Source of the DNA: an uncultured Victivallales bacterium
GTDB taxonomy: Bacteria; Verrucomicrobiota; Lentisphaeria; Victivallales; UBA1829
DNA: 46,336 nt
Direction of reading: 5' to 3'
Assembly (NCBI GenBank): GCA_944390795.1
Contig: CALXRI010000010.1
Coordinates: 64,537-110,872, forward strand
Below are positions 3,814-43,792 of the stretch, in pieces (the first letter of the stretch is position 1; every line of letters begins with the position of its first letter). The notes below the pieces were generated by a model that was given only the letters and a program-made list of their open reading frames with translations, did no database searches and had not been told where the DNA came from. Both the position numbers and the translations under genes were made by a program.

Positions 3814-3897
3814 GCACGAGTGGCGGAACGGCAGACGCGCCGGATTTAGGTTCCGGTTTCGCAAGAAGTGCAGGTTCAAGTCCTGTCTCGTGCACCA
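3814..3897 (+). tRNA. tRNA-Leu (anticodon UAG)
   Basis: The sequence folds as a class II tRNA. The acceptor stem is GCACGAG (3814-3820) paired with CTCGTGC (3887-3893), followed by discriminator A and an encoded CCA at 3895-3897. The anticodon arm is CCGGA-TTTAGGT-TCCGG, giving anticodon TAG (UAG, leucine CUN codons). A long variable arm follows, then a T arm with the TTCAAGT loop. It lies six bases after the anti-sigma gene and converges with the 5'-nucleotidase gene. Confidence 0.96.
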
Positions 3898-41852: not shown

Positions 41853-42590
41853 CTATTTCCGGCTGTCCGGGGTTCGGGCCATGGCGGAAAGAATTTTCGG
41901 GAGCGCCGGATTCTCTCCGTTTTCCAGGGCCAGGAGCGCCGTGACGGCCGCCGCGGTTCCACCCCGCCCCTGTTCGAGCAGCATGCCGATGTCCGCGATC
42001 ATGCCGAACTGCATCCTGTCATTTTCCGTCATTTGCATCGTCTTTACTTCAGACTCTTTTCTTTCAATAAAGTTCTGTATTTTCTGGGAAATCATGATGT
42101 TTTTCGTAGCGTCGCGGAGACCTGCGAGCGCGCCGGAAAGCTGATCGGAAGATTTCGCCTTGCCGGCTTTTTCCAGAAATGCGCCGATTTTAACAAGGCG
42201 CGCCAGCTGTTCCACTGCCTCCGTCGTATCCTCGTGCCTGCCATTTTGGATTTCCTGCGCTTCCAGATATTTCAGCGCCGCCTGGAATTCCCCTTTTTCC
42301 ACAAGCCCGTTGACGTGCTTCATGACGGCGTTGTTGCGCTCGACGGCCTCCAGCTCCGAAAGAAACACGCTGGTTTTTTCTATGGCGCGGAGCCGTTCAA
42401 TTTTCACGAGAGCCAGTTTGTGGTTTCCGTTCGCGGCGGCTTCGTATATTTCAAGGAGAAGTTCCGGATGCGCTTTGGGCGGGGCGGGGAGTTTATTGTC
42501 CGAGCAGGAGACCAGAAACAGGGCTGTCAGAGCCGCGGCAAAAAGAAAACCGTTTCCGGTTCGCCCCCTGTTCCCTTTTTGAAAAATCAT
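41853..42590 (-). CDS. predicted lipoprotein of helical repeats, unknown function
   Basis: I do not recognise a family for this 245-residue protein. It has a basic N-terminus, a hydrophobic stretch FLFAAALTALFLVSC and a good lipobox (L-V-S-C), so it is probably a lipoprotein. The mature part is nearly all alpha-helical and resembles TPR-like pairs, for example ELLLEIYEAAANGNHKLALV and GLVEKGEFQAALKYLEAQ. It comes first in a two-gene unit with the parvulin lipoprotein, which suggests a shared role in envelope protein quality, by inference. The ribosome-binding site (AGAGAGAG) is weak. Confidence 0.75.
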   Translation of the reverse strand: MIFQKGNRGRTGNGFLFAAALTALFLVSCSDNKLPAPPKAHPELLLEIYEAAANGNHKLALVKIERLRAIEKTSVFLSELEAVERNNAVMKHVNGLVEKGEFQAALKYLEAQEIQNGRHEDTTEAVEQLARLVKIGAFLEKAGKAKSSDQLSGALAGLRDATKNIMISQKIQNFIERKESEVKTMQMTENDRMQFGMIADIGMLLEQGRGGTAAAVTALLALENGENPALPKILSAMARTPDSRK

Positions 42591-42713: not shown

Positions 42714-42741
42714 TTGAATTCCCGGAAAAACATGATATTTT
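42714..42741 (+). promoter_or_regulatory. candidate promoter of the small basic protein gene
   Basis: TTGAAT (42714-42719) and TATTTT (42736-42741) are 16 bases apart, about 55 bases before the start codon of the 35-residue gene. Confidence 0.5.
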
Positions 42742-42795
42742 GCATGGTTTAACATGACGAATCAAAACCAATGATGGACGACAAGGAGTCGAAAA

Positions 42796-42903
42796 ATGGG
42801 AAAGCAGTATAACAAGCTTCAGAAGAGAGCCCGCCGCAAAGCCTATCTGGAAAGAGTCAAGGCCAAAGTCAAAGCGGCAATGAAAACAGGCAAGAAGAAA
42901 TAA
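42796..42903 (+). CDS. 35-residue strongly basic protein, probable PVC-superphylum signature protein
   Basis: This tiny gene starts with MGKQYNKLQKRARRKAYLER and ends in KTGKKK. More than a third of its residues are Lys or Arg, and it contains almost no acidic residues. It has its own promoter candidate, an AAGGAG site eight bases before the ATG, and a strong terminator eight bases after the stop, so it is clearly expressed as a unit. The composition and motif recall the small nucleic-acid-binding protein reported as unique to Planctomycetes, Verrucomicrobia, Chlamydiae and Lentisphaerae. I make that identification from memory. A ribosome-associated role would fit. Confidence 0.75.
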   Translation: MGKQYNKLQKRARRKAYLERVKAKVKAAMKTGKKK

Positions 42904-42910
42904 TCGCAGG

Positions 42911-42934
42911 GGCGGGGATTTCCCCGCCTTTTTT
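42911..42934 (+). terminator. intrinsic terminator after the small basic protein gene
   Basis: GGCGGGGA (42911-42918) and TCCCCGCC (42921-42928) form a tight stem followed by six T. It separates the small gene from lpxA. Confidence 0.93.
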
Positions 42935-42994: not shown

Positions 42995-43792
42995 ATGGCT
43001 AATATTCATCCGACGGCGGTTGTCGATCCTTCCGCCGTGCTGGCAGATGACGTCGAGGTCGGGCCTTACTGCGTCATAGAACATGATACCAGCATCGGGT
43101 CCGGCACCCGGCTTCTCGGGCAGTGCCGCATCGGCGCCTATGCCACGCTCGGCGCGAACAACGTCGTCTATCCTTTCGCCTCGATCGGCACGGAGCCGGA
43201 GGATTACGGCTTCGAGGGCGGCGTCTCCTATACGAAAATCGGTGACAACAACAGATTCCGCGAAGGCGTCACGGTCAACCGGGGAACTCATGAGGGCACG
43301 GTGACCACGATCGGAAACGGATGTTTCATGATGGCGAATACCCACGTCTCCCACAACTGCACGATCGGGAACGGCGTTGTGATGGTGCCTTACAGCGGCT
43401 GTGCCGGATACTGCACCGTCGGGGACAAATGCCTGATTTCCGGACTTTCCGGAATGCATCAGTTCTGCCGCATGGGCCGTATGGCGGTCCTGAGCGGAGG
43501 CTCCCAGATTTCGATGGATCTCGCTCCGTTCATGATCGGCGACGGACGCAACGGCGGCGTGCGCGGATTCAACATCGTCGGCATGAAGCGCAACGGTTTT
43601 TCCAAGGAGACGATCCGCGCGATCAAGGATCTTTACGACATCTTCTTCCGCCACGGACTGAGCATGAGCAACGCGATTGCCAGGGCGGAGGCCGAGGTCC
43701 CGCTCCTGCCCGAGGTCGTGGAGTTTCTCGATTTCATCAAGACCACGAAACGCGGCATTCTGACCGGCGACCGCGGCGGTCGCAGAGCCTGA
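42995..43792 (+). CDS. lpxA: UDP-N-acetylglucosamine O-acyltransferase
   Basis: This 265-residue enzyme transfers a 3-hydroxyacyl chain from ACP to UDP-GlcNAc, the first step of lipid A synthesis. The left-handed beta-helix hexapeptide repeats fill the first 180 residues. The catalytic base corresponds to His120 in MANTHVSHNCTIGNGVVM, and the LpxA-specific FNIVGMKRNGFSKETIRAIK follows. I start it at 42995, where AAGGAG lies seven bases upstream; the frame is open 16 codons further, into the space after the terminator. lpxA stands apart from lpxD and fabZ, which are not in the window. Confidence 0.95.
   Translation: MANIHPTAVVDPSAVLADDVEVGPYCVIEHDTSIGSGTRLLGQCRIGAYATLGANNVVYPFASIGTEPEDYGFEGGVSYTKIGDNNRFREGVTVNRGTHEGTVTTIGNGCFMMANTHVSHNCTIGNGVVMVPYSGCAGYCTVGDKCLISGLSGMHQFCRMGRMAVLSGGSQISMDLAPFMIGDGRNGGVRGFNIVGMKRNGFSKETIRAIKDLYDIFFRHGLSMSNAIARAEAEVPLLPEVVEFLDFIKTTKRGILTGDRGGRRA

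What the first reader, a model, noticed from the sequence alone, without database searches (positions are those of the whole stretch)
42796..42903. A 35-residue basic protein missed by ordinary length cut-offs, possibly the PVC signature protein
The gene is fully equipped (promoter, strong ribosome-binding site, terminator) and its product is dominated by Lys/Arg with a conserved-looking G-K-x-Y-N-K-x-Q-K-R start. It resembles the nucleic-acid-binding signature protein of the PVC superphylum. At 35 residues it would be easily skipped in annotation. It also supports the taxonomic placement of the window.
Basis: partly seen in the sequence, partly recalled or inferred. Interest (0 to 1): 0.65.

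Follow-up and report, generated by a model that had tools for sequence, protein, structure and literature searches.

The report
Unnamed Verrucomicrobiota small basic protein
The 35-residue gene is real and conserved across much of the bacterial phylum Verrucomicrobiota, but it is not the known "PVC signature protein", which this genome carries elsewhere; it belongs to a separate family with no entry in the family libraries searched, probably RNA- or DNA-binding.

Summary
Window 42796-42903 (+) encodes MGKQYNKLQKRARRKAYLERVKAKVKAAMKTGKKK, with a Shine-Dalgarno site, a terminator and a genus-conserved upstream block. It is single copy, under strong purifying selection (pS 0.77, pN 0.16), and has homologues in 51 of 61 relatives and 225 of 384 Verrucomicrobiota genomes; a reversed profile finds 0 of 145.

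The PVC signature protein (CT421.2) is about 50-53 residues, longer in Planctomycetes. This genome carries a separate 52-residue gene matching NCBIfam TIGR04137 "small basic protein" (82.5 bits, cut-off 50), near-universal in the phylum (143 of 145). The window protein has no TIGR04137, Pfam, NCBIfam or PDB match, and the two profiles do not align.

So it is a second, unnamed family: an N-terminal core MG[KQR]Q.NK..KR.RR..Y..R, predicted as one basic helix, ending at 31-43 residues in Lentisphaeria but followed by Lys/Ala-rich, histone-H1-like tails (to 135 residues) in many Verrucomicrobiia. Most likely function: nucleic-acid binding, perhaps a phylum-specific ribosomal or ribosome-associated protein (inferred). 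Neighbours in some clades (leuS, rimO-like, yacP-like) hint at translation but vary. A nucleoid role is the main rival. Planctomycetota and Chlamydiota could not be searched directly.

The parts
42796..42903 (+). 35-residue small basic protein gene (MGKQYNKLQKRARRKAYLERVKAKVKAAMKTGKKK)
   Evidence: Translation; single copy; homologues in 51/61 relatives and 225/384 phylum genomes; purifying selection; AlphaFold2 single helix 7-34, pLDDT 91
42783..42788 (+). Shine-Dalgarno AAGGAG, 7 nt before ATG
   Evidence: Sequence; SD-like motif upstream in 121/121 Lentisphaeria loci examined
42714..42745 (+). Promoter-like conserved block (TTGAAT, 16 nt, TATTTT, then GCAT)
   Evidence: Conserved among four genomes of the genus; not called by the sigma-70 scan, so tentative
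42908..42931 (+). Intrinsic terminator between this gene and lpxA
   Evidence: 10-pair stem, T tail; G+C-rich hairpin after the stop codon in 14/14 selected family loci
42995..43792 (+). Downstream neighbour: LpxA-type UDP-GlcNAc O-acyltransferase
   Evidence: Pfam PF13720 1.6e-24 and Hexapep; an LpxA-like gene is also downstream in 9 fetched loci
41853..42590 (-). Divergent neighbour: lipoprotein-like protein, no Pfam family
   Evidence: No Pfam match; related protein upstream in 5 fetched loci

Best explanation
Shown: a real, single-copy, purifying-selected gene of a protein family with no model in the libraries searched and distinct from TIGR04137 (taken to be the PVC signature protein). 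Its conserved part is about 22 N-terminal residues (MG[KQR]Q.NK..KR.RR..Y..R), predicted as a short extended tip followed by one strongly basic helix. Inferred: the helix lies along the phosphate backbone of nucleic acid, while the nearly invariant non-basic residues (G2, Q4, N6, Y17) and R20 fix it at a specific site; this suits a structured RNA better than bulk DNA. Most likely it is a phylum-specific ribosomal or ribosome-associated protein, working like bTHX or bS22 without being related to them by sequence. The Lys/Ala-rich tails of many Verrucomicrobiia members would add non-specific affinity.
For: distribution; reversed-profile control 0/145; coding selection; conserved columns, including non-basic ones; R20, which was not used to pick the sequences, is invariant; single helix, pLDDT 91; neighbours leuS, rimO-like, NYN_YacP in separate clades; absent from viral, plasmid and phage records; separate from TIGR04137.
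Against: No experiment or solved homologue. Neighbours are not uniform: lpxA, ispF and others also occur, and the window genome has no yacP match. The family was not found in a substantial share of phylum genomes, odd for a core ribosomal protein. Lys/Ala-rich tails also fit a nucleoid protein. It does not replace bS21, which is present.
Confidence: 0.45

Rival explanations
1. A nucleoid-associated, histone-H1-like protein: the basic helix, extended in some lineages by Lys/Ala/Pro tails, coats or bridges DNA.
For: Tails of 17 long members are 31% Ala and 27% Lys with repeated KKAxxKK; weak, below-cut-off matches of two long members to HC2 and H1-like models.
Against: The window protein and the other Lentisphaeria members lack a tail of this kind; the conserved part is the short core with invariant non-basic residues; HC2/H1 matches probably come from composition. 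To my knowledge ribosomal proteins in several phyla carry similar tails.
Confidence: 0.25
2. It is the PVC signature protein (CT421.2 family) in a short form.
For: Small, basic, present in Verrucomicrobiota.
Against: A separate TIGR04137 gene is in the same genome and in 143/145 phylum genomes; lengths differ; no profile similarity; no TIGR04137 match for any core member.
Confidence: 0.02
3. A leader peptide whose translation regulates the downstream lpxA through the terminator.
For: In the window and several Victivallales loci the terminator lies between the short ORF and lpxA.
Against: The amino-acid sequence is conserved across the phylum beside unrelated genes, and some members reach 85-135 aa; selection acts on protein sequence.
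Confidence: 0.04

Closest known systems
PVC signature protein (CT421.2; taken to be NCBIfam TIGR04137 'small basic protein')
   Same: Small, basic, single copy, present across Verrucomicrobiota, proposed nucleic-acid binding
   Different: 50-53 aa or longer, different sequence (MSxHPSLK...RNVLKRFER...GLPKTK), near-universal; both genes coexist in this genome
Phylum-specific small ribosomal proteins (bTHX, bS22, bL37, bL38; from general knowledge)
   Same: Very short, very basic, easily missed in annotation
   Different: No sequence match in Pfam, NCBIfam or PDB; ribosome association untested here
Histone H1-like proteins HC2 / NF038053
   Same: Lys/Ala-rich tails in long Verrucomicrobiia members
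   Different: Below all curated cut-offs; the tail is absent in the window protein and the conserved core is unrelated

Membership tests
PVC signature protein (CT421.2 / TIGR04137) | Match to TIGR04137 above cut-off (50 bits) | tested here: not met
   0 NCBIfam families for P0001 and no TIGR04137 for any A2 core member; profile-profile probability 0.04%
PVC signature protein (CT421.2 / TIGR04137) | About 50-53 aa conserved region (over 80 aa in Planctomycetes) | tested here: not met
   35 aa; conserved core about 22 aa; published lengths
PVC signature protein (CT421.2 / TIGR04137) | Only gene of this kind in the genome; universal in PVC members | tested here: not met
   Separate TIGR04137 gene in G000; TIGR04137 in 143/145 genomes against 225/384 for the window family
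PVC signature protein (CT421.2 / TIGR04137) | Identity of TIGR04137 with CT421.2 | tested here: inconclusive
   Length, phylum-wide presence, absence from 14 control genomes and model name agree; no Chlamydia sequence could be fetched
PVC signature protein (CT421.2 / TIGR04137) | Non-specific DNA/RNA binding | not testable with these tools
   Needs gel shift
Phylum-specific ribosomal protein | Physically part of the ribosome | not testable with these tools
   Nothing in PDB; the closest solved bS21 to a Victivallales bS21 scores only 43 bits, so no close relative's ribosome appears to be solved
Phylum-specific ribosomal protein | Homology to a known small ribosomal protein | tested here: not met
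   No Pfam or NCBIfam ribosomal family matched
Histone H1-like HC2 | HC2 match above gathering score | tested here: not met
   At most 20.6 bits against 40, and only in tailed members

The most novel reading that the evidence does not exclude
An undescribed, Verrucomicrobiota-specific ribosomal protein, carrying a histone-like tail in some lineages.
Probability: 0.4. Interest if true: 0.65.

Novelty: new member of a known kind. Interest (0 to 1): 0.45.

Why it matters
It adds a second small basic gene, conserved across much of Verrucomicrobiota and without a model in the family libraries searched, beside the known PVC signature protein. Because members occur in culturable genera such as Akkermansia, its location on the ribosome or nucleoid can be tested directly.

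Tried and rejected
PVC signature identity: rejected. Replacement of bS21: rejected, bS21 present in 58/61 relatives. Replacement of L30: L30 is absent from this genome, but the published suggestion of an L30 substitute concerns the other protein (PMC7203096). Phage or plasmid gene: no matches. Annotated RNA: Rfam finds only a tRNA in the window. Fold search: no match, as expected for a lone helix. Ten paper searches gave nothing on this family.

Full report
Observation. It has a good Shine-Dalgarno site and a terminator; the promoter is plausible from conservation in the genus, but the consensus scan did not call it. It is a gene: one copy in its genome, homologues in 51 of 61 relatives, synonymous change far above non-synonymous, and a G+C-rich hairpin after the stop codon in 14 selected family loci.

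Identity. The papers that describe the PVC signature protein give CT421.2 as 53 aa in Chlamydiaceae, 50 aa in Methylacidiphilum and longer in Planctomycetes. The matching library family is TIGR04137, 'small basic protein'. The window's own genome has one such gene on another contig: MSRHPSLKSTGKIRKKRNVLKKFERVNLLTADGRWKPGQKVLSGLPKTKPLD. TIGR04137 is in 60 of 61 relatives and 143 of 145 phylum genomes. The window protein matches no model, and its profile does not align with TIGR04137 members. The equation of TIGR04137 with CT421.2 is an inference from size, distribution and name.

The family. Profiles of the window family find 188 of 289 and 225 of 384 Verrucomicrobiota genomes, nearly always one copy. 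The reversed profile, with the same composition, finds none of 145. The counts are lower bounds: one genome scored as lacking it has what looks like a diverged member (L177). A scan of 85,000 species confirmed 220 stretches; the best 80, the only ones shown, are Lentisphaerota and Verrucomicrobiota by title, with five labelled only 'uncultured bacterium' whose proteins match Victivallales ones. The other 140 could not be inspected, so restriction to the phylum is likely but not proven.

Anatomy. Residues 1-22 carry the conservation. M1, G2, Q4, N6, K7, K10, R13, Y17 and R20 are invariant in the 25-row alignment; the larger set was collected with a pattern that fixes some of these, but R20 was not in the pattern and is still invariant. 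AlphaFold2 gives one helix, residues 7-34, mean pLDDT 91. Lentisphaeria members are 31-43 aa; other members are 30-135 aa, many with Lys/Ala-rich tails.

Context. Neighbours differ by clade: lpxA or ispF in Victivallales groups, leuS upstream in five Lentisphaerae loci, NYN_YacP-like genes downstream in ten Verrucomicrobiota loci, a RimO-like protein in two others (LeuS and RimO named by sequence and partial Pfam support). Three of these are translation-related, which is suggestive only.

Mechanism. Nucleic-acid binding follows from charge and helix and is likely. Binding to ribosomal RNA is preferred because non-basic residues are conserved and because of the neighbours, but it is not shown. 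A nucleoid role is the main rival. Patchy presence argues against an essential role.

Noticed in passing
G000:C17:33061-33210 (-), locus L148:1492-1650: The likely true PVC signature protein of this genome (TIGR04137, 52 aa, 82.5 bits), outside the window.
   Followed up: yes
L112, L119, L121, L122, L125, L138, L155-L157, L169: Verrucomicrobiia members carry histone-H1-like Lys/Ala/Pro tails after the conserved core.
   Followed up: partly
Upstream of homologues, all loci: SD-like motifs precede 121/121 Lentisphaeria homologues but only 6/42 homologues in other Verrucomicrobiota, suggesting a different translation-initiation mode.
   Followed up: no
L105, L108, L115, L123, L126, L129, L132, L134, L159, L160: NYN_YacP (Rae1-like nuclease) gene directly downstream of the homologue; the window's genome has no NYN_YacP match.
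   Followed up: partly
Own genome G000: No ribosomal protein L30 (PF00327) match, as published for PVC bacteria.
   Followed up: partly
window 41853-42590 (-): Lipoprotein-like protein without any Pfam family, divergent from the small gene; a related protein lies upstream in 5 fetched loci.
   Followed up: no
window 3814-3897 (+): tRNA-Leu gene.
   Followed up: no
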